Shown here in pieces: positions 12,703 to 63,337 of a stretch of 64,000 bases of DNA. The notes under the pieces were generated by a model, which searched no databases, was not told where the DNA came from, and worked only from the letters and a program-made list of their open reading frames with translations. The stretch is from Herbiconiux sp. (lineage in GTDB: Bacteria; Actinomycetota; Actinomycetes; Actinomycetales; Microbacteriaceae). The position numbers and the translations under genes are program-made. Where the stretch lies: contig NZ_JAHFUW010000001.1 of the NCBI RefSeq assembly GCF_023264855.1, positions 1 through 64,000 on the forward strand, given 5' to 3'. Positions within the stretch are counted from its first letter, which is position 1; each line of letters opens with the position of its first letter.

Positions 12703-13554
12703 GTGACCCGTTACCTCATCACCGGCGCCGCCGGCATGCTCGGCCGCGACCTCCAGGACGCCCTGGAGGGCCGCGACGTTGTCGCCCTCACCCGCGCTCA
12801 GCTCGACATCACCGACCCGGCGGCCGTGGCCGCTGCGGTCTCGGGCATCGACGTCGTGTTCAACTGCGCCGCCTACACCGCGGTGGATGCGGCGGAGACC
12901 GACGAAGACGCCGCCCGTGTGGTGAACGCGGTCGGCCCCGCCACCCTCGCGGAGGCGACGGCCGCATCCGGAGCGAAGCTGTTCCAGATCTCGACCGACT
13001 ACGTGTTCCAGGGCGACGCCACCTCGCCGTACCCCGAAGACGAGCCGCGCGATCCGCTGAACGCCTACGGCCGCACCAAGGCGGGCGGCGAGACCGCCGT
13101 TCTGGGCCTGAACCCGGCCGGCGGCTACGTCGTACGCACCGCCTGGTTGTACGGCCGGCACGGCGCGAACTTCCCCGCCACCATGCTGCGCCTCGGCCGC
13201 GAACGCGACAGCGTCGCGGTCGTCGCCGACCAGGTCGGGCAGCCCACCTGGACCGCCGATCTGGCCCGTCAGCTGGTGCTGCTGGCCGACTCGGATGCCC
13301 CGGCCGGCATCTATCACGGCACCAATTCCGGGCAGGCATCCTGGTTCGAGTTCGCCCAGGCAACCTTTCAGGAAGCCGGATTGGACCCTGCTAAAGTCGG
13401 TCCAACGGACAGTTCGCAGTTCGTCCGTCCTGCCCCGCGTCCCGCGTACTCCGTACTCGGGCACGACGCGTGGTCCCGAGCAGGATTACCGCCCATGCGC
13501 CCCTGGCGCACAGCCCTGCATGAGGCGACCACCTCGGGAGTTTTTGGAGAGTAA
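12703..13554 (+). CDS. rfbD: dTDP-4-dehydrorhamnose reductase
   Basis: 283 residues with GTG start, 18 bases after rfbB. RmlD features: ITGAAGMLGRDL (6-17) for NADPH, ISTDYVFQGD (96-105), the Y122-K126 pair in AYGRTKAGGE, and VVRTAWLYG. It performs the final reduction to dTDP-L-rhamnose. This is the monofunctional reductase; in some actinobacteria the epimerase is fused, but here RfbC is encoded separately about 9.7 kb away. The TAA stop overlaps the next ATG (TAATG), so translation of the glycosyltransferase is coupled. Confidence 0.96.
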   Translation: MTRYLITGAAGMLGRDLQDALEGRDVVALTRAQLDITDPAAVAAAVSGIDVVFNCAAYTAVDAAETDEDAARVVNAVGPATLAEATAASGAKLFQISTDYVFQGDATSPYPEDEPRDPLNAYGRTKAGGETAVLGLNPAGGYVVRTAWLYGRHGANFPATMLRLGRERDSVAVVADQVGQPTWTADLARQLVLLADSDAPAGIYHGTNSGQASWFEFAQATFQEAGLDPAKVGPTDSSQFVRPAPRPAYSVLGHDAWSRAGLPPMRPWRTALHEATTSGVFGE

Positions 13555-14693
13555 TGGCCACGCTACGGGTGATCATCGATCAGCTGGTGGCCCCCGTTCC
13601 CGGCGGTATCGGGCGCTACACGCTCGAGCTCACGAAGCAACTCGTCGCCACCGCGCCGCGCGGCTGCGACGTGGAGGGCATCCTCTCGGCCGTGCCGCAG
13701 GAGAAGGCCGACGAGGTGAGCGCCAAGCTGCCCGGGCTCGCCGGGCTGCACCGCGCCACGCTCCCGCGCCGTGAGCTCTCGGCCGCCTGGCAGCACGGGC
13801 TCATCGGCACCTCCGGCGAGGGCATGGTGCACGCCACCAGCCTGCTCGCCCCCGTGCGCAAGCACGACCGGCGATCGGATCTCGGCACGCAGACGGCCGT
13901 GACGATCCACGACGTCGTGCCGTGGACGCATCCGTCGACCCTCACGCCCCGCGGCGTCAGCTGGCACAAGGCGATGGCGAAGCGCGCCGCGAAGTACGCC
14001 GACGCGATCGTGGTGCCCACGCACGCCGTGGCCGAAGACCTCTCGCGCTACCTCAACTTCGGCGACCGCATCCGGGTCATCGGCGGTGCGGTGAGCGATG
14101 AGCTGCGGCTTCCCTCCGATCCCACCGCGCGCGCCCTCGAGCTCGACCTGCCCGAGCGGTACCTGCTGGCCGTGGGCACGCTCGAGCCGCGCAAGGGGCT
14201 CGCGGCGCTCATCCAGGCGCTCGCGCATCCGGCCACCGGCGACCTTCCGCTGCTGATCGCCGGCCCCGAAGGCTGGGGCGAGGTCGACGTGGCCTCGGTC
14301 GCCGGCGCGGCCGGTGTGGATGCGTCGCGCATCCGCGTGCTCGGCTTCGTGAGCGACTCCGACCTGGCGCTGCTGCTGGAACGCGCGACCGCGTTCGTCT
14401 ACCCGAGCCTCGCGGAGGGCTTCGGCCTGCCGATCGTCGAGGCCTTCAACTTCGGCACCCCGGTCATCCACGCGGATGTGCCGGCCCTGCTCGAGGTGGC
14501 CGCCGGATCCACCTTCGTGGTGGAGCGCACCACGGCCGACGCGTATGCGGGGCAGCTCGCCGAGGCGATCGGCGCGGTGGTGTCCGACGCGAAGTTGCGC
14601 CAGCGGCTGTCGATCTCCGGTCTCGACCGGGCGCGGGCGTTTTCGTGGCGCGATTCCGCCGACAAGGTGTGGCAGCTGCACGCTGATCTGTAG
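13554..14693 (+). CDS. GT4 family glycosyltransferase
   Basis: 379 residues, two Rossmann domains (GT-B fold). N-terminal PVPGGIGRYTLELT gives the acceptor-side glycine loop; TIHDVVPWTHP and VVPTHAVAEDL follow. The C-terminal donor site has LAVGTLEPRKGLAALIQAL, LLIAGPEGWG, and YPSLAEGFGLPIVEAFNFG with the E-x7-E motif of GT4 retaining enzymes. Coupling to rfbD suggests a rhamnosyl- or mannosyltransferase of the surface polymer; the donor cannot be fixed from sequence. It is convergent with the LCP gene, separated by the first copy of the interspersed hairpin element. Confidence 0.9.
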   Translation: MATLRVIIDQLVAPVPGGIGRYTLELTKQLVATAPRGCDVEGILSAVPQEKADEVSAKLPGLAGLHRATLPRRELSAAWQHGLIGTSGEGMVHATSLLAPVRKHDRRSDLGTQTAVTIHDVVPWTHPSTLTPRGVSWHKAMAKRAAKYADAIVVPTHAVAEDLSRYLNFGDRIRVIGGAVSDELRLPSDPTARALELDLPERYLLAVGTLEPRKGLAALIQALAHPATGDLPLLIAGPEGWGEVDVASVAGAAGVDASRIRVLGFVSDSDLALLLERATAFVYPSLAEGFGLPIVEAFNFGTPVIHADVPALLEVAAGSTFVVERTTADAYAGQLAEAIGAVVSDAKLRQRLSISGLDRARAFSWRDSADKVWQLHADL

Positions 14694-14735
14694 GCCGTGG
14701 GGTCGGGTTCGTTGGTGGTGTCTGGGTAGACCGCG

Positions 14736-14900
14736 GTCCTGCTGTGTTTGTTGCCGGTCGCGCCGGGCTTCGCTCGGCGTGACCGGGCTGCGCCGGTCCC
14801 TGCCCGGCGCAGCGCGACATGTGAGCGCGCGGTCGAGGGACGCGGCCTGCGGTCGCATCCCTCGGCCACACGCTCACCTTGGGTCGTCGAGTACGGCCTG
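14736..14900 (+). repeat. Interspersed three-hairpin element, copy 1
   Basis: 165 bp in the gap between convergent genes. Hairpin I is 14754-14786 (14-bp stem, CTTCG loop). Hairpin II is 14787-14813 (10-bp stem, TCCCTGC loop). Hairpin III is 14821-14877 (outer GTGAGCG/CGCTCAC clamp, inner 17-bp stem with loop TGC). A conserved unpaired tail CTTGGGTCGTCGAGTACGGC and CTG ends the element. It aligns without gaps to copy 3 and with one deletion to copy 2. Paired positions change together between copies, showing that the fold is maintained. No ORF of its own is convincing. Confidence 0.85.
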
Positions 14901-14930
14901 TTGCGTGCGTGCAGGTACCACCGTGTTTGG

Positions 14931-16301
14931 CTATTGAGGTGAGTTCGTAGCGTTGGAGAGTACTAGGGCGCTCGAGACCGTGCTTCGGACGAGGTCCCAG
15001 TCGGGGGCCTCGGGGTCGATCAGAGGGGGCGTGAGCTCGACGTTGTCGATCGGGAGGTCCTTGGTCTTGAGCGCCAGGTCGAGGAAGTAGGCGAGGGTCG
15101 ACTGCGGGATGTCGGTCTGCACGACCTGGGTGCCGGCCGAGACGATGTCCTGGAACTTCGAGAGCACGTTCACCGGCTGGAACTGCTTCAGGATGGCCGT
15201 CTGCAGTTCGCGCTGGCGCTCCATCCGGTCGTAGTCGCTCGTGGTGTGGCGGGAGCGGGCGTACCAGAGGGCCGTGTAGCCGTCCATGTGCTGCTCGCCG
15301 GGCCAGATGATGCCCTCGACCTCGTTGCCCTCTTCGTCACCGCCCATCGGCAGCTCCTCGGTGACGTTGATGTCGACGCCGCCGAGCGCGTCGATGAGGT
15401 CGGAGAAGCCCTGCATGTCGATCATCACGTAGTACTGGATGGTGATGCCGAGGGCGCCCTCGATGGCATCCTTCGTCGCCTCGACGCCGGGGTTCGAGCC
15501 CTCGGCGTCGGCGTTCGGATACAGGTCCTGGTCGAAGGCCATCACGCGCGGGTAGAGGAAGCTGATCTGGCAGTCGCTGCCGCAGTCGTAGCTGCCGTCG
15601 GGGGCGTAGTCGGTGCCGATCAGGGGCGAGTCCGCCGCCAGCGGCACGTCCTGCAGGTCGCGCGGGATGCCCACCATCGTCGCCCGCCCCGTGTCGGCCT
15701 CGATGGAGACCACGGTCATGCTGTCGGGCCGCATGCCGTCGCGGTCGGGCCCGGCGTCGCCGCCGAGCAGCAGGATGTTGTAGCGGCCGTCGACCGGGGG
15801 CTCGGCCGCGGCCTGCGCGTTGAACACCGAGCTCAGGCCCGACTGCGCCACATTCGCGTAGTACGCCGCTGCCGCCGCGCCTCCCGAGGTGAGCACCAGC
15901 AGCACCACCGAGAACGCCGCGAGCGCCGGGCGGGCGCGATCCCCCACGCGCACCAGCCGCACGAGACGCAGGGTGTCCAGCGTGAGCACCACCCAGAGCA
16001 CCGCGTAGGCGATCAGCACGCCCTGCGCGATGGTGAGCGGAATCGGGTTCGTGGCGATCGAGAAGATCACCTGCGGCCAAATCGTGTAGATGATGAGGCC
16101 GAGCACGGCCAGGATCCACAGCGCGAAGGTGAAGTAGAGGCCGAAGCGGCCGAGCTTGCGGTTGCCGGCGAGCACCTGGGCGGATCCCGGGATCAGCAGG
16201 TTGAGCACGACGAGCCACCACCCCCTGACCGTCATGGCCTTGGAGGAGGTGACATCCGGATACCGGATCGGGCTCGCTGTGGAGGAGGCGGTTGTCGTCA
16301 T
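14931..16301 (-). CDS. LytR-CpsA-Psr family glycan ligase
   Basis: 456 residues. The N-terminal third has several hydrophobic segments ([64 protein letters not shown]). The rest is the LCP domain outside the membrane: [20 protein letters not shown] with conserved Asp/Arg, [11 protein letters not shown], the disulfide-like CGSDC, and [20 protein letters not shown] holding the phosphate-binding arginines. LCP enzymes attach lipid-linked glycans (teichoic acid, arabinogalactan, capsule) to peptidoglycan, so this may attach the polymer encoded next door. The start overlaps the purE stop (ATGA). Confidence 0.92.
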
Positions 16302-16839: not shown

Positions 16840-17976
16840 TCAGTTCTGGAAGAACGCCGCAGCGGCACGCGCGCGGAACACGACGTCGTCGAGCTCGTCG
16901 CCGGCCACGGTGAGGTGCCCGATCTTGCGGCCGGGCCGGGCGGTCTTGCCGTAGAGGTGCAGCTTCGCCGTCGGCTGGTCTTCCAGGGCGGCGCGCGCCG
17001 GCCCGTCGAGGTCACCGTCGGAGGGTCCGCCGAGGATGTTGATCATCACGGTCCACGGCTCGCGGAAGCCGGTGGCGCCCAGCGGCAGGTCGAGAACCGC
17101 CCGCAGGTGCTGCTCGAACTGGCTGGTGGTCGAGCCGTCGATGGTCCAGTGTCCGGTGTTGTGCGGGCGCATCGCCAGCTCGTTCACCAGGATGCGCTCA
17201 TCCGTCGTCTCGAACAGCTCGACGGCGAGCACGCCGGTGACACCCAGTTCTTCGGCGATCGTGTGCCCGATGCGGGCTGCCATCTCGGCCACGGCGCCGG
17301 CGGCACCGGGAGCCGGGGCGATCACCTCGGCACAGACGCCGTTTTTCTGGATCGACTCGACGACGGGCCACAGCGTGGTCTCGCCGCTAGGCCGCCGGGC
17401 GACCAGCTGCGCGAGCTCGCGGCGGAACTCGACCAGTTCTTCTGCCAGCAGGGCGCCTCCGCGGCCGTCTTCGTCGAGCGCCTGGAACCACTCCTCCACC
17501 TGAGCGGCGGATTCGACGACCCGCACGCCCTTGCCGTCGTAGCCGCCGCGCGCGGTCTTGACGACCGCCCGGCCGCCGTGGTCGGCGATGAACGCGTCGA
17601 GCTGCTCCGGCGTCTCGACCCGGGCCCAGTCGGGCATCGGGATGCCGAGCTCGCCGAGCCGTTCGCGCATCCGCAACTTGTCCTGGGCGAACTGCAGAGC
17701 ATCCGGGCCCGGATGCACGCGCACGCCCTCCTCGACGAGCGCCCGCAGCACGGCCTGAGGCACGTGCTCGTGGTCGAACGTCACGACGTCGACGTCGCGC
17801 GCGAACGCCCGCACGGTCTCGAGATCGGTGTAATCCCCCACCGCTGTCCCCGCGATCGCGGCCGACATCCCCTCGCCCTCAGCGAGCACCCGGATCTCGA
17901 TCCCCAGCTCGATCGCCGGAGGAACCATCATCCGGGCCAACTGCCCGCCACCCACAACGCCCACAACAAAAGTCAC
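16840..17976 (-). CDS. purK: 5-(carboxyamino)imidazole ribonucleotide synthase
   Basis: 378 residues with an ATP-grasp fold: [13 protein letters not shown] at the N-terminus, [23 protein letters not shown] for ATP binding, and [15 protein letters not shown] near the metal site. It carboxylates AIR with bicarbonate and ATP to N5-CAIR. The GTG start (17976) has no Shine-Dalgarno and lies 6 nt after TAAACT, so it begins a leaderless purK-purE-LCP operon. Confidence 0.97.
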
Positions 17977-18017: not shown

Positions 18018-18181
18018 CAGGCCCTGCTCGATGACCCAAGGTGAGCGGGTGGCCGGAGGATGCGACCGCAGGCCGCGTTCTCCGACCGCGCGCTCACATG
18101 TCGCGCGGCGCCGGGCAGGGACCGGCGCCGCCCCGGGACGCCGAGCGAAGCCCGGCGCCCCGGCAGCTAACACAGCCGGAC
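18018..18181 (-). repeat. Interspersed three-hairpin element, copy 2 (inverted)
   Basis: 164 bp, in opposite orientation to copies 1 and 3 and lying between two minus-strand genes. It has the same three-hairpin order. Hairpin I is altered on both arms (CCGGG/CCCGG in place of CCGGTC/GACCGG, with one base lost on the left arm). Hairpin III carries coordinated changes. The 8-mer AGTCTCAG occurs at both edges (18013-18020 and 18182-18189). Confidence 0.82.
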
Positions 18182-18228: not shown

Positions 18229-18963
18229 TCACGAGTACGGCAGCGGCGGCACCGGGTGCTCGGTGAGGTCGCCGAGCAGCTCGGCCACCAAGCGCGCCGA
18301 GGGCACGTCGTGCAGGACGACCGTGAGGTCGGGGCCGGCGACTACGCGCACGTTGCCGGTGGCGAACGCCGCCTGCAGCGGAGTGCGGCGCACACGGATG
18401 TCGGTGACGCGCGCCAGATAGAGGTCTTGGCGGTCGCCCACGAAGAGGCCCCGACGGGCGATGATGCGGCGCGAGGTGATGGTGTAGCGGTGACCCAGCC
18501 ACGCGATGAAGGGCAGCAGCGTACCGAAGAACACCAGAGCTCCCGCCCCGGCGAGCGCCGTGATGTTCTGCCACTCCTCCGGGAACCGCCCGCCGAACCA
18601 GCCGAGGGCCGTCACCGTGGCGAACAGGATGAGCACGGGGATGGTCAGCCGCCGCGCGTGCGGGCGGGTGCGCAGCAGGATGGTCTCGGGCACCGGCTCC
18701 ACCGCGGTGGTGTAGCCGCCGTAGCCGGGATGGGCGGGTGCGCCGGGCGACGCTGTCGCGCCGGGGCCGGGGCCGGACCCGGGCGCGGCCTGGGCAGCAG
18801 GGGCCGCCGCCGCACCCCATCCGAAGCGCTCGGTCGCCGCCTGATCACCCGGATCGGCCCGCGGAGACCGCCCTCGCGTCACGGGCTCGGCACCGTTCAG
18901 GAGCGCGGTGAACGAGTCCTCGTCCTCCGTGGGTACATTCCTGCGCCTGGCCATGCTGCCCAT
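18229..18963 (-). CDS. PH-domain membrane protein
   Basis: 244 residues. The N-terminal ~85 residues are low-complexity (Ala/Gly/Pro-rich, probably disordered). Two membrane helices follow (LTIPVLILFATVTALGWFGG and ALVFFGTLLPFIAWLG). Then comes a bacterial PH (bPH2) segment, YTITSRRIIARRGLFVGDRQ, continuing with LYLARVTDIRVRRTPLQ and VRVVAGPDLTVVLHDVP. Bacterial PH proteins of this type are of unknown precise role, often linked to envelope stress or membrane organisation. The downstream MARRRN start (18954) is an alternative. It is flanked by birA upstream and the hairpin element downstream. Confidence 0.8.
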   Translation of the reverse strand: MGSMARRRNVPTEDEDSFTALLNGAEPVTRGRSPRADPGDQAATERFGWGAAAAPAAQAAPGSGPGPGATASPGAPAHPGYGGYTTAVEPVPETILLRTRPHARRLTIPVLILFATVTALGWFGGRFPEEWQNITALAGAGALVFFGTLLPFIAWLGHRYTITSRRIIARRGLFVGDRQDLYLARVTDIRVRRTPLQAAFATGNVRVVAGPDLTVVLHDVPSARLVAELLGDLTEHPVPPLPYS

Positions 18964-60685: not shown

Positions 60686-61756
60686 TCAGGGTGCGCTCGG
60701 CGACTCCACGACGACGGCGCCGGAGACGATCTGCTCCTTCAGCGCATCGATCTCGGCCGACAGCTCGGCCGGAACCGAGGAGGCGAGATCGTGGAAGGGC
60801 GCGAGCTCCACGCCGCCGTTCTCGAGGGTGCCGACGAACGGATCGGGCGAGAACGATCCCCCGATGTCGTCGCCGACGATCTGCACCACCGCGTCTCCGG
60901 TGTTCTTCATCACGCTCGTCAGCACGATCGGCTGGTACTCGGCCGGCAGCGTCTCGTAGCCGTCGTTGTCGACCCAGATGATCGACACCCCGCCCTTCTC
61001 CGCCGCCGCGGAGGCCGCACCCTGGCCCACCTGGCCGGCCACGGGCATGATGATGTCCGCGCCCTGGTCGATGAAGCCCTGGGTCACGGTCTTGCCCTTG
61101 TTGATGTCTTCGAAGTCGCCGGTGAACACGCCGTCCTGCGAGGCCTTGTCCCAGCCGAGCACCTGCACGGCGGCGCCGTGAGCCTCGTTGTACTTCGCGA
61201 CGCCGTCGACGAAGCCGTCCATGAACAGCGTGACGGGCGGCTGGTTGCCGCCGCCGAAGGTGGCCACCTTGCCGGTCTTGGAGACGCCCGCGGCGAGGTA
61301 CCCCGCGAGGTAGGAGGCCTGGGCGGTGTCGAACAGGATCGGCTTCACGTTCGCAGCGTCGACCGTCTCGTCCACGATCGCGAAGTGCGTGTCGGGATTC
61401 TTGCCCGCCTCGTCGAGGGTGGCGTCGGCCAGCTCGTAGCCCACCGTCAGCACGAAACCGCATCCGCTCTGCACGGCCTGCGCCACGTTCGGAGCCAGGT
61501 CGGTCTCCCCCGTCGACACGAGCACCTGCGCGTCGATGCCGAACTCCTTCTCGGCCGCCTGCAGCCCCTCCCAGCTGCTTTGGTTGAACGACCGGTCGTC
61601 GAGCCCACCCGAGTTCGTCACCATCCGAGCGCAGTAGTCGCTGGCGGAGTCGCTGGCAGCCCCGGTAGACCGCGGCGGCGCGTCAGCGCACCCGCTCAGC
61701 GCCACCACCAGTGCAGCAACGACGACCCCGGATGCGACAGCGACACGACTTCTCAT
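60686..61756 (-). CDS. BMP-family nucleoside-binding lipoprotein 2
   Basis: 356 residues, paralogue of the downstream lipoprotein with the same domain order: signal MRSRVAVASGVVVAALVVAL, lipobox LSGC, then MVTNSGGLDDRSFNQSSWEG, LFDTAQASYLAGYLAAGVSK, VATFGGGNQPPVTLFMDGFV, IIMPVAGQVGQGAASAAAEK, VDNDGYETLPAEYQPIVLTS. The ligand-facing residues differ (QVGQGAA versus GPIFLSA), so specificities may differ. The ATG is 6 nt after TAGACT, likely leaderless. 228 bp separate it from lipoprotein 1. Confidence 0.92.
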   Translation of the reverse strand: MRSRVAVASGVVVAALVVALSGCADAPPRSTGAASDSASDYCARMVTNSGGLDDRSFNQSSWEGLQAAEKEFGIDAQVLVSTGETDLAPNVAQAVQSGCGFVLTVGYELADATLDEAGKNPDTHFAIVDETVDAANVKPILFDTAQASYLAGYLAAGVSKTGKVATFGGGNQPPVTLFMDGFVDGVAKYNEAHGAAVQVLGWDKASQDGVFTGDFEDINKGKTVTQGFIDQGADIIMPVAGQVGQGAASAAAEKGGVSIIWVDNDGYETLPAEYQPIVLTSVMKNTGDAVVQIVGDDIGGSFSPDPFVGTLENGGVELAPFHDLASSVPAELSAEIDALKEQIVSGAVVVESPSAP

Positions 61757-61810: not shown

Positions 61811-61975
61811 GTCCTGCTGTGCTAGCTGCCGGTCGCGCCGGGCTTCGCTCGGCGTGACCGGGCGGCGCCGGTCCCTGCCCGGCGCCGCGCGACATGTGAG
61901 CGCGCGGTCGACGGGCGCGGGCTTCGCTCGCACCCGTCGGCCACACGCTCACCTTGGGGCGTCGAGTACGGCCTG
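61811..61975 (+). repeat. Interspersed three-hairpin element, copy 3
   Basis: 165 bp, gap-free alignment to copy 1. Hairpins at 61829-61861, 61862-61888 and 61896-61952. Hairpin III differs from copy 1 at four stem positions, of which the changes G-C to C-G, A-T to G-C and C-G to G-C are two-sided. It lies between manC and the lipoprotein 2 gene, both on the minus strand. Confidence 0.85.
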
Positions 61976-62029: not shown

Positions 62030-63151
62030 TTAGAGGACGTCGCCGCTACCACCGGCCCGCAGGGCGTCGACGACCGACTTGACGCGCTGGGCGTGCTCGC
62101 TGGTGGTCACCAGGAGCGCGTCGGGGGTGTCGACCACGACGATGTCGCGGACGCCGATCAGGCTGATCACGCGCTTGGACTGCGAGACCACGATGCCGCT
62201 GGAGGAGTCCGAGAGCACGCGGGCGTTCTGGCCCAGGATGGCGAGCTCGCTGCCCCGTCCCGAGCTGTGCAGCTTGGCGATGGAGGCGAAGTCGCCCACG
62301 TCGTCCCAGTCGAAGTCGCCCGGGATGACGGCGAGGATGCCGGCGGCCGCGGCCGGCTCGGCGACCGAGTAGTCGATCGCGATCTTCTTCAGCGTCGGCC
62401 AGACGCGGTCGACGACCTCGCCGCGCTTGGGGGTGTCCCAGGCTTCCGCCAGTTCGAGCAGGCCGGCCAGCAGTTCGGGCTCGGTCTTGCCGAGCTGCTC
62501 GAGCAGCTTGTCGGCGCGGGTGATGAACATGCCCGCGTTCCAGAGGTACTTGCCCGACTTGAGGTAGCGGCGGGCGGTGGCCAGGTCGGGCTTCTCGACG
62601 AAGTTGTCGACCTTCAGGGCGCTGGCGGCATCCTCGATGCCGAGCGGCTTGCTGGTGTGGATGTAGCCGAAGCCCACCGCGGCATCCGTCGGGGTGATTC
62701 CGATCGTGGCGATGTAGCCGGCGTCGGCCACCACGACCGCCTGCTTCACGGCGGCGCGGAAGCGGTCGGGGTTGGTGATGACGTGGTCGGCGGCGAACGA
62801 GCCGATGATCGCGCCGGGCTCGCGGCGCTCCAGGATGGCGGCGGCCAGCCCGATGGCGGCGGTCGAGTCGCGCGGCTCGCTCTCCAGAACCACGTTGTGA
62901 TCCTGCAGATCGGGCAGCTGCTCCTCGACGGCGGCGCGGTGAGCACGGCCGGTCACGACCATGATCCGCTGCTCGCCCGCGAGCGGGGCGAGGCGGTCCC
63001 AGGTGTCGCGCAGCAGACTCTGGCCCGATCCGCTCAGATCGTGCAGGAACTTCGGCGCATCCGCACGCGACAGCGGCCACAGCCGCGAACCGATCCCCCC
63101 GGCGGGGATCACGTTGTAGAGCCGCTCGAGCGGCGAAGAAGTCGAAGTCAT
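62030..63151 (-). CDS. manC: Mannose-1-phosphate guanylyltransferase
   Basis: 373 residues from ATG. NTP-transferase signature NVIPAGGIGSRLWPLSRADA with K-containing PKFLHDLSG, then GSFAADHVITNP, GYIHTSKP, VDNFVEKPDLATARRYLKSG, YLWNAGMFI and IPGDFDWDDVGDFASI. The C-terminal isomerase cupin of long ManC forms is absent, as in other actinobacteria. It makes GDP-mannose for glycolipids and surface glycans, fitting the mannosyltransferase across the divergent promoter. The start is 7 nt after TAGGCT. Confidence 0.93.
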   Translation of the reverse strand: MTSTSSPLERLYNVIPAGGIGSRLWPLSRADAPKFLHDLSGSGQSLLRDTWDRLAPLAGEQRIMVVTGRAHRAAVEEQLPDLQDHNVVLESEPRDSTAAIGLAAAILERREPGAIIGSFAADHVITNPDRFRAAVKQAVVVADAGYIATIGITPTDAAVGFGYIHTSKPLGIEDAASALKVDNFVEKPDLATARRYLKSGKYLWNAGMFITRADKLLEQLGKTEPELLAGLLELAEAWDTPKRGEVVDRVWPTLKKIAIDYSVAEPAAAAGILAVIPGDFDWDDVGDFASIAKLHSSGRGSELAILGQNARVLSDSSSGIVVSQSKRVISLIGVRDIVVVDTPDALLVTTSEHAQRVKSVVDALRAGGSGDVL

Positions 63152-63158
63152 GGGCGAC

Positions 63159-63164
63159 AGCCTA
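63159..63164 (-). promoter_or_regulatory. -10 box for leaderless manC
   Basis: TAGGCT on the minus strand, 7 nt before ATG. Confidence 0.5.
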
Positions 63165-63337
63165 ACGGGCGCGAAAACGAGACCCTGAGTCCCGAGACGC
63201 CGAGCCCGCGCGCGGGGCATCCGCTCGTCGGACGCCGCTCATCCGCCGGTCACCTGCGGGCCACCGTCAGGCCACCCCGCCTTCCTAGCCTGAGGGCGTG
63301 GCCGGATGCGGTCAGCCGACGAACACGGAGGCACCTC

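What the first reader, a model, noticed from the sequence alone, without database searches (positions are those of the whole stretch)
14736..14900. 165-bp interspersed element with three covarying hairpins in three copies
Copies at 14736-14900 (+), 18018-18181 (-) and 61811-61975 (+) lie only in intergenic gaps. Each forms the same three hairpins. Hairpin I outer pairs are CCGGTC/GACCGG in copies 1 and 3 but CCGGG/CCCGG in copy 2. Hairpin II pair 3 is T-A in copy 1 and G-C in the others. In the 17-bp stem of hairpin III, pair 6 is A-T, G-C, A-T; pair 7 is G-C, A-T, C-G; pair 10 is A-T or G-C; pair 16 is C-G or G-C (copies 1, 2, 3 as listed above where three are given). Multiple two-sided changes mean selection on base pairing, so a structured RNA or a DNA hairpin substrate, not simple neutral repeats. 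The loops TCCCTGC and CTTCG and the tail CTTGGGTCGTCGAG are nearly invariant. I know of no named family that matches, though I cannot search.
Basis: seen in the sequence. Interest (0 to 1): 0.88.

Follow-up and report, generated by a model that had tools for sequence, protein, structure and literature searches.

The report
Three-hairpin repeat at gene ends
A roughly 165-base repeat that folds into three hairpins is scattered in dozens of copies through one genus of bacteria, often right at the stop codons of genes; it behaves like a larger, apparently undescribed cousin of the short 'REP' repeats known from other bacteria.

Summary
The three window copies belong to a family with 41 BLAST matches in the own genome and 86 copies in one relative; 15 of 16 genomes of the genus (Herbiconiux, inferred from record titles) have a match, two of them a single weak one. 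No Rfam family, plasmid, phage or IMG/VR record matched. The fold is supported by covariation in 38 copies and by paired changes between orthologous copies of two species, some of which are block swaps. The new fact is position: in two genomes the sites are mostly convergent or codirectional gaps, and among 99 copies whose 5'-side gene runs towards them, 60 overlap or follow its stop codon within 12 nt; TAG is over-represented there. (The window's own copies sit further off, about 50 nt or at a gene start.) Close neighbours are nearly always convergent. REP/BIME repeats behave this way, but this element is several times longer, lacks the GTAG tag, and no Y1_Tnp (RAYT-type) gene was found in the 15 genomes that carry it. 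A second genus (g45) has a cousin family sharing hairpin II. Best reading: a new REP/BOX-like repeat family, spread by an unidentified enzyme and kept as a transcribed 3'-UTR structure. Mobility and RNA function are inferred.

The parts
14736..14900 (+). Element copy 1 (model match 14741-14908)
   Evidence: lies between the stop TAG of the + gene 13554-14693 and the stop of the - gene 14931-16301; profile start 49 nt behind that TAG
14754..14786 (+). Hairpin I of copy 1
   Evidence: helix 2: 10 of 12 pairs with two-sided changes among 38 copies
14787..14813 (+). Hairpin II of copy 1, loop TCCCTGC
   Evidence: the stem top is shared with a second genus
14814..14820 (+). Conserved linker GCGACAT; GCGAC can pair with 14883-14888
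   Evidence: helix 5, 89.5% of cells paired, no two-sided changes
14821..14877 (+). Hairpin III of copy 1, with a nearly invariant U-G wobble in its lower stem
14878..14900 (+). 3' tail CTTGGGTCGTCGAGTACGGCCTG; 14890-14897 can pair with 14741-14748 (closing stem)
   Evidence: helix 1
18018..18181 (-). Element copy 2, between the stop of the - gene 18229-18963 and the start of the - gene 16840-17976 (PurK-like by recall)
   Evidence: 54 nt behind the upstream stop; the same gap in relatives holds other copies or, by eye, none
61811..61975 (+). Element copy 3, between the start of the - gene 60686-61756 and the stop of the - gene 62030-63220; its 5' side faces a gene start

Best explanation
The element is a lineage-specific, non-coding, REP/BIME/BOX-like interspersed repeat. 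Each unit is a composite of three hairpins on the strand given. Its 5' tip (YTAG-like, or GGTACCG in subtype B) often lies at or a few bases behind the stop codon of a gene, so that it would be transcribed as that gene's 3' UTR. Where two genes converge each can carry its own copy, which gives head-on pairs. SHOWN: family, fold, distribution, placement at gene ends, convergent pairing, conservation at orthologous sites. INFERRED: the family spread as a non-autonomous element recognised through single-strand hairpins and a TAG-containing target by an enzyme that is no longer present or was not recognised. INFERRED: settled copies are kept because a structured 3' UTR is useful or harmless, for example by shielding mRNA 3' ends or helping transcription end.
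For: 41 BLAST matches in the own genome, matches in 15 of 16 genomes of the genus, 86 copies in G001. Covariation and paired changes between orthologous copies. Wobble G-T cells outnumber A-C cells 434 to 72, so the fold belongs to this strand (model-fitted alignment, leans that way). Sites: G001 44 convergent, 21 codirectional, 2 divergent of 67; G000 18, 19, 0 of 38 rows, 1 at an edge, one codirectional site counted three times. 5' boundary overlaps or follows a stop codon within 12 nt in 60 of 99 copies, median 4 nt; in convergent solo copies the 5' end is the nearer one in 43 of 52 (P=2e-6); TAG 66 of 99 at the 5' side against 12 of 48 in the window background and 21 of 68 at the 3' side. 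Neighbours under 1 kb in three genomes of 2-5 contigs: 22 of 23 convergent. Orthologous sites of G012 and G015, pooled: element 91.6% identical with 41 gap columns, adjoining 60 nt 82.8% with 264, outer mostly coding 92.5%. Published REPs show the same 3'-end placement, dimers, and TAG stops supplied by the repeat (PMC3733652, section 15 read).
Against: No mobiliser was found: Y1_Tnp occurs only in G004, which has no element. No target duplication was seen by eye in the 7 units examined of 13 aligned, and the exact ends are uncertain, so insertion itself is not demonstrated. The three window copies do not show the tight stop-codon placement (about 50 nt off, or a gene start). In codirectional gaps solo copies point with the genes in 19 and against them in 14. 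23 of 122 copies have a gene start on the 5' side. At 2 of 9 orthologous sites the element is no better conserved than the adjoining 60 nt, and at 6 of 9 less than the outer sequence. Terminator-like sites just behind the element are few (7 of 122, against 0 of 120 and 1 of 122 in controls). No expression data.
Confidence: 0.6

Rival explanations
1. A cis-acting RNA module (3'-end or terminator element) maintained by selection, inherited vertically and copied only by rare recombination; mobility plays little part.
For: 10 of 38 own-genome loci share the same gap, by both flanks, with an element in G001, and 3 more by one flank (L003, L019, L306; L019 matched both flanks) (the 38 loci are not all distinct sites). 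9 of 12 G012 sites have an element-bearing ortholog among 12 of the 14 G015 sites; pooled conservation near that of mostly coding sequence. Orthologs look more alike than paralogs in the examples compared by eye.
Against: Very similar copies at unrelated sites in G000 (98.75% identical over 160 bases, no flank similarity); matches vary from 0 to 86 copies between species; the purK gap looks empty in most relatives (by eye); few terminator signatures.
Confidence: 0.2
2. A foldback/MITE-type transposon whose unit is the convergent pair (arm-spacer-arm) moved by a DDE transposase; single copies are units that lost an arm.
For: Gaps of 130-142 bp in 12 of 16 convergent pairs in G001, spacers related by eye; pair in one species and single copy in the other at two orthologous sites, L321/L326 and L322/L330.
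Against: The outer ends of many units are different subtypes (A and B), not inverted repeats of each other, and no target duplication was seen in the 7 units examined of 13. Ends follow their own gene's stop codon. Single copies predominate in G000.
Confidence: 0.1
3. Retron, bridge RNA (IS110) or omega RNA (TnpB/IscB) derivative.
For: Multi-hairpin fold with a closing stem resembles such RNAs in outline (recalled).
Against: RVT_1 only in G003, G004 and G009; IS110 over the cut-off only in G006 and below it in G007; TnpB in 0 of 16 genomes; no Rfam match in the window.
Confidence: 0.03
4. Pairing is kept by template-switch correction of quasi-palindromes and module exchange, with no selection on the fold.
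For: Block swap of hairpin II at one orthologous site; rapid change of hairpin I with nearly perfect stems.
Against: Loops, linker GCGACATGT and tail are conserved although unpaired or weakly paired; 14 one-sided changes that keep pairing also occur, though 23 break it; wobble asymmetry.
Confidence: 0.15

Closest known systems
REP / BIME / REPIN repeats (GTAG superfamily, RAYT-associated)
   Same: Intergenic, between convergent or codirectional genes, next to gene ends, TAG of the repeat tip used as stop, dimers, palindromic (PMC3733652: abstract, passages and section 15 seen).
   Different: Mostly 144-178 nt with three hairpins instead of 20-40 bp; tip mostly CTAG, TTAG, TTTG or CTTG, not GTAG; no Y1_Tnp match in any of the 15 element-bearing genomes.
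CGTC-tagged REPs
   Same: Repeats without an associated transposase; dimers (abstract and passages of PMC3733652).
   Different: Short single palindrome; the passages seen name Proteobacteria, Chlorobi, Bacteroidetes, Spirochaetes and Thermotogae, not Actinobacteria.
BOX elements of Streptococcus pneumoniae
   Same: Interspersed repeat with extensive secondary structure, seen as a slow parasitic element (abstract of PMC3049150); modular build is recalled.
   Different: Sequence and placement were not compared here.
Cousin family in genus g45 of the same family
   Same: 5' TTTACTGCC-like start, hairpin I, hairpin II with the same stem top and a TCCCYGC loop, then GCGC.
   Different: Different 3' half (GTCGGC...GCGTTCCGCAGAGCG...), sometimes tandem; genus name not established.

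Membership tests
GTAG REP / REPIN | 20-40 bp palindrome with unpaired GTAG at one end | tested here: not met
   Three hairpins, rows of 151-169 nt in A2; tip mostly CTAG, TTAG, TTTG or CTTG
GTAG REP / REPIN | RAYT (Y1_Tnp) in the genome | tested here: not met
   PF01797 without a match (E <= 0.001) in the 15 element-bearing genomes, one match in G004; control rang in 5 of 14
REP/BIME-like in behaviour | Placement at gene 3' ends and dimers | tested here: met
   with the exceptions told in the Against line
CGTC REP | Short palindrome with CGTC tag at one end | tested here: not met
   CGTC occurs in the tail, but the element is not a single short palindrome
MITE | Terminal inverted repeats and target duplication | tested here: inconclusive
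   none seen by eye in 7 of 13 aligned G001 units, exact ends uncertain
Retron | Reverse transcriptase linked to the RNA | tested here: not met
   RVT_1 in 3 of 16 genomes, not tracking copy number; control rang in 3 of 14
IS110 bridge RNA | IS110 transposase | tested here: not met
   over the cut-off in 1 of 16 genomes, below it in one more; control rang in 4 of 14
TnpB/IscB omega RNA | TnpB zinc-ribbon protein, or Rfam match | tested here: not met
   PF07282 0 of 16, control 6 of 14; Rfam 0 in the window; IscB itself not searched
IS91/ISCR | Y2_Tnp transposase | tested here: inconclusive
   0 of 16, but no control genome rang
Intrinsic terminator | GC hairpin followed directly by a T run | tested here: not met
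   terminator-like site just behind the element in 7 of 122
BOX element | Sequence homology to boxA/B/C | not tested
   placed here from the abstract of PMC3049150 and recall
Integron attC | R and L boxes and an integrase | not tested
   considered only from memory

The most novel reading that the evidence does not exclude
A transposase-less three-hairpin module that an unknown ssDNA- or RNA-dependent enzyme places at stop codons, and that the host then uses and preserves as a portable 3'-end signal for dozens of genes; the same hairpin II core founded separate families in at least two genera of Microbacteriaceae.
Probability: 0.15. Interest if true: 0.78.

Novelty: new variant of a known kind. 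Interest (0 to 1): 0.5.

Why it matters
REP-type repeats are best known as short hairpins thought to be moved by RAYT transposases. Here is a much larger composite repeat in a high-GC Gram-positive genus with similar placement at gene ends but no such enzyme found, conserved at orthologous sites, when pooled, about as well as the flanking mostly coding sequence. It gives a test case for two open questions: how transposase-less repeats spread to gene ends, and whether settled copies act as mRNA 3'-end structures.

Tried and rejected
Rfam at gathering score on the window and at E up to 5 on 351 bases: only microRNA-precursor hairpin look-alikes far below their thresholds; rejected as chance. Plasmids, phages and IMG/VR: no match (an exact pattern only). 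Own-genome flanks compared with each other for a hidden autonomous copy: none among 30 loci; every match was the same stretch of genome or an unmasked element copy. The 1.5-kb gap between head-on copies in L072 was first taken for a transposon; no recurring transposase was seen there and the ORFs look like ordinary genes (names by recall). Retron, IS110, TnpB, IS200/IS605 and IS91 routes: (the IS91 search had a silent control). Convergent pair as the mobile unit: weakened by stop-codon placement of the ends.

The best-explanation confidence was lowered from 0.62 to 0.60 on recheck. In one search two rows showed a neighbour's copy; corrected. A2 left out 3 truncated copies of 41 (L036, L040, L041). 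One search used 86 distinct rows of 114, dropping rows under 100 letters and duplicates. One search left out 3 antisense sub-matches of the 121 matches. One search ended with an error before the last loci and was repeated in full as (38 loci with a profile match; L309, L312, L313 had none, L026 and L030 were left out as the same site as L303; L074 repeats the site of L014, and L005 and L018 overlap). One search set aside 127 pair cells with gaps. One search found the hairpin II motif 10 times, in 7 of 12 g45 loci. Gene contexts rest on my own codon-usage ORF caller, trained on 13 window ORFs and not checked against an annotation; my caller puts some gene starts too far in. The chance level for shared sites was not computed. 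Literature: (Herbiconiux + repetitive) 0 papers; (Microbacteriaceae + intergenic + palindromic + repeat + hairpin) 0; one search listed 10 of 43 Herbiconiux genome papers, none opened; two searches listed nothing on this; led to the two papers cited.

Full report
OBSERVATION. The three stated copies exist, align end to end and are intergenic. The two-sided changes that I checked are in the alignment. Copy 1 as a BLAST query gives 41 matches in the 4.37-Mb own genome, itself included (40 of 156 candidates scored). Thirty-eight of these were aligned (A2; three truncated ones left out). With a structure of three hairpins, a closing stem and a short stem around hairpin III, 94.6% of cells are paired, 30 of 63 pairs show two-sided change, and none of 500 shuffles reaches any of the five measures. 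The structure came from RNAalifold on the same alignment, so the slid controls flatter it.

WHERE IT OCCURS. A covariance model of the 38 copies has matches in 15 of 16 genomes of the genus; G003 and G013 have one weak match each and G004 none. Raw match counts overstate copy number, because the long form of hairpin III also matches on the opposite strand: in the own genome 75 matches were counted, of which 39 full-length ones are listed; for G001 the complete list of 88 holds 86 copies. A core pattern matched 67 stretches in a collection with one genome for each of 84,980 species, all titled Herbiconiux, 'Corynebacterium-like bacterium B27' or 'Microbacteriaceae bacterium 3FA27C10' (exact pattern); that the window is Herbiconiux is inferred from this. 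In 249 genomes drawn from the family, strong matches are confined to this genus, with weak ones in three genomes of a second genus, g45 (stricter filters and 11 scored candidates per genome, so weak relatives may be missed). No plasmid or phage record matched by blastn and no IMG/VR contig held the exact core pattern.

RELATED FAMILY. The g45 matches share the TTTACTGCC-like start, a hairpin I and hairpin II with the same stem top and loop type, but a different 3' half. One such copy as a BLAST query matched in 15 of 15 g45 genomes, with 2 to 56 matches each, some in tandem. I read this as a cousin family; homology rests mainly on hairpin II.

STRUCTURE AND ITS CHANGE. Hairpin I varies most, in sequence and length, and is missing in some copies; hairpin II has two main tops; hairpin III has a short and a long form; the linker GCGACATGT and the tail are the most constant parts (part of the printout was cut). 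G-T wobbles outnumber A-C mismatches 434 to 72 in 86 distinct rows, so the fold belongs to the strand given; this alignment was fitted to the model and leans that way, but one wobble in the lower stem of hairpin III occurs in 85 of 86 rows. Between G012 and G015, eleven orthologous copy pairs show 19 pairs changed on both sides (16 kept) against 2.6 expected, 14 one-sided changes that keep pairing and 23 that break it in one of the two species. Five of the 16 come from one block swap of hairpin II, so events are fewer than cells.

POSITION. With a home-made ORF caller, G001's 67 sites are 44 convergent, 21 codirectional and 2 divergent; in G000, 38 rows gave 18, 19 and 0 with one at an edge (one codirectional site appears three times). 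Of 122 distinct copies of these two genomes, 99 have a gene running towards their 5' end. After setting subtype B to its GGTACCG start, the 5' boundary overlaps the stop codon or follows it within 12 nt in 60 of 99, within 25 nt in 70, median 4 nt. In 52 convergent solo copies the 5' end is nearer to a stop than the 3' end in 43 (P=2e-6). The stop on the 5' side is TAG in 66 of 99, against 12 of 48 other window ORFs and 21 of 68 stops on the 3' side. The tip often reads CTAG or TTAG and can itself be the stop. The window's own copies are not the best examples: copy 1 starts 49 nt and copy 2 54 nt behind the stop, and copy 3 faces a gene start; many own-genome copies have an extra stretch of about 45 bases before the folded part. 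In 23 of 122 copies the 5' side is a gene start, and in some of these the tip overlaps what looks like a -10 box (by eye). In codirectional gaps solo copies run with the genes in 19 and against them in 14. Neighbouring copies closer than 1 kb in G001, G012 and G015 are convergent in 22 of 23 cases.

HISTORY. Sites are partly shared between species: 10 of 38 own-genome loci have an element in the same gap of G001 by both flanks and 3 more by one flank, one of which (L019) matched both flanks (the loci are not all distinct sites, and no chance level was computed). Orientation often differs. At the purK gap, G000, G001, G002, G005 and, by eye, G014 hold different copies and in the others none was seen in about 420 bases; on a purK tree the genomes with none or one match (G003, G004, G013) form one clade. 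For G012 and G015, 9 of 12 G012 sites have an element-bearing ortholog among 12 of the 14 G015 sites. Pooled identity is 1370/1496 in elements (41 gap columns), 806/973 in the adjoining 60 nt (264), 305/476 in spacers (475) and 4332/4684 further out, mostly coding. Site by site the element beats the adjoining 60 nt at 7 of 9 and the outer sequence at 3 of 9. Two sites show a pair in one species and a single copy in the other. So copies persist and are conserved, pairs can decay (or grow), and G000 also has very similar copies at unrelated places, which points to copying.

HOW IT MAY WORK. Shown: a strand-specific fold, placement at gene ends, conservation. Inferred: it is transcribed as a 3' UTR. 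Inferred: it spread through hairpin recognition at a TAG-containing target. No enzyme could be tied to it: Y1_Tnp only in G004, RVT_1 in G003, G004 and G009, IS110 over the cut-off only in G006 and below it in G007, TnpB in none; the Y2_Tnp search is uninformative because no control rang. Other transposase and recombinase families were not searched. A terminator-like site lies just behind 7 of 122 copies against 0 of 120 and 1 of 122 in controls, so the element is not itself a classical terminator, though it may sit before one.

COMPARISON. Di Nocera and others (PMC3733652; outline and abstract, passages, section 15) describe REPs of 20-40 bp that lie mostly between convergent and codirectional genes, in two species shown mostly within 20 bp of gene ends when convergent, as dimers, with GTAG tips that often supply the TAG stop, and CGTC REPs that lack a dedicated transposase. 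The present element behaves like these but is not a member: it is far longer, composite, not GTAG-tagged and without RAYT. BOX elements (outline and abstract of PMC3049150) are a looser parallel. No description of this repeat was found in the two searches made for it; the Herbiconiux genome papers listed were not opened.

VERDICT. A real, apparently undescribed, genus-wide structured repeat family; new variant of a known kind. Interest 0.5: the stop-codon placement, the size and the missing enzyme are notable, but the general kind is familiar and function is untested.

Noticed in passing
L336-L347 and the places: A second genus (g45) of the family carries its own abundant hairpin repeats sharing hairpin II, in L341 as tandem units 125 bp apart.
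   Followed up: partly
L216-L228 (G001): Spacers between convergent copies are mostly related to each other and contain inverted-repeat stretches of the type CGAAACGACGGAG ... CTCCGTCGTTTCG.
   Followed up: no
L033, about 440-485 (same site as L306): A clear intrinsic terminator begins inside the element's tail (AAAAGGGCCCGCGG ... CGCGGGCCTTTTC).
   Followed up: partly
window 14694-14740, and L002, L007, L009, L016, L017, L019, L020: Many own-genome copies share up to about 45 bases upstream of the folded part (GTCGCG..GCGGTT..CGTGGGTGAC..GTC), a longer subtype whose limits were not worked out.
   Followed up: no
L256, L275, L285, L238 (copies with a gene start on the 5' side): The tip seems to provide a -10-like TANNNT box for the gene that starts there.
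   Followed up: no
L011, behind the element: Short direct repeat of about 28 bases ending in GCTCGACCTCGCGCC behind the copy.
   Followed up: no
G001:C3 (65,861-base contig): A possibly plasmid-sized contig carries four copies at three sites; not checked whether it is a plasmid.
   Followed up: no
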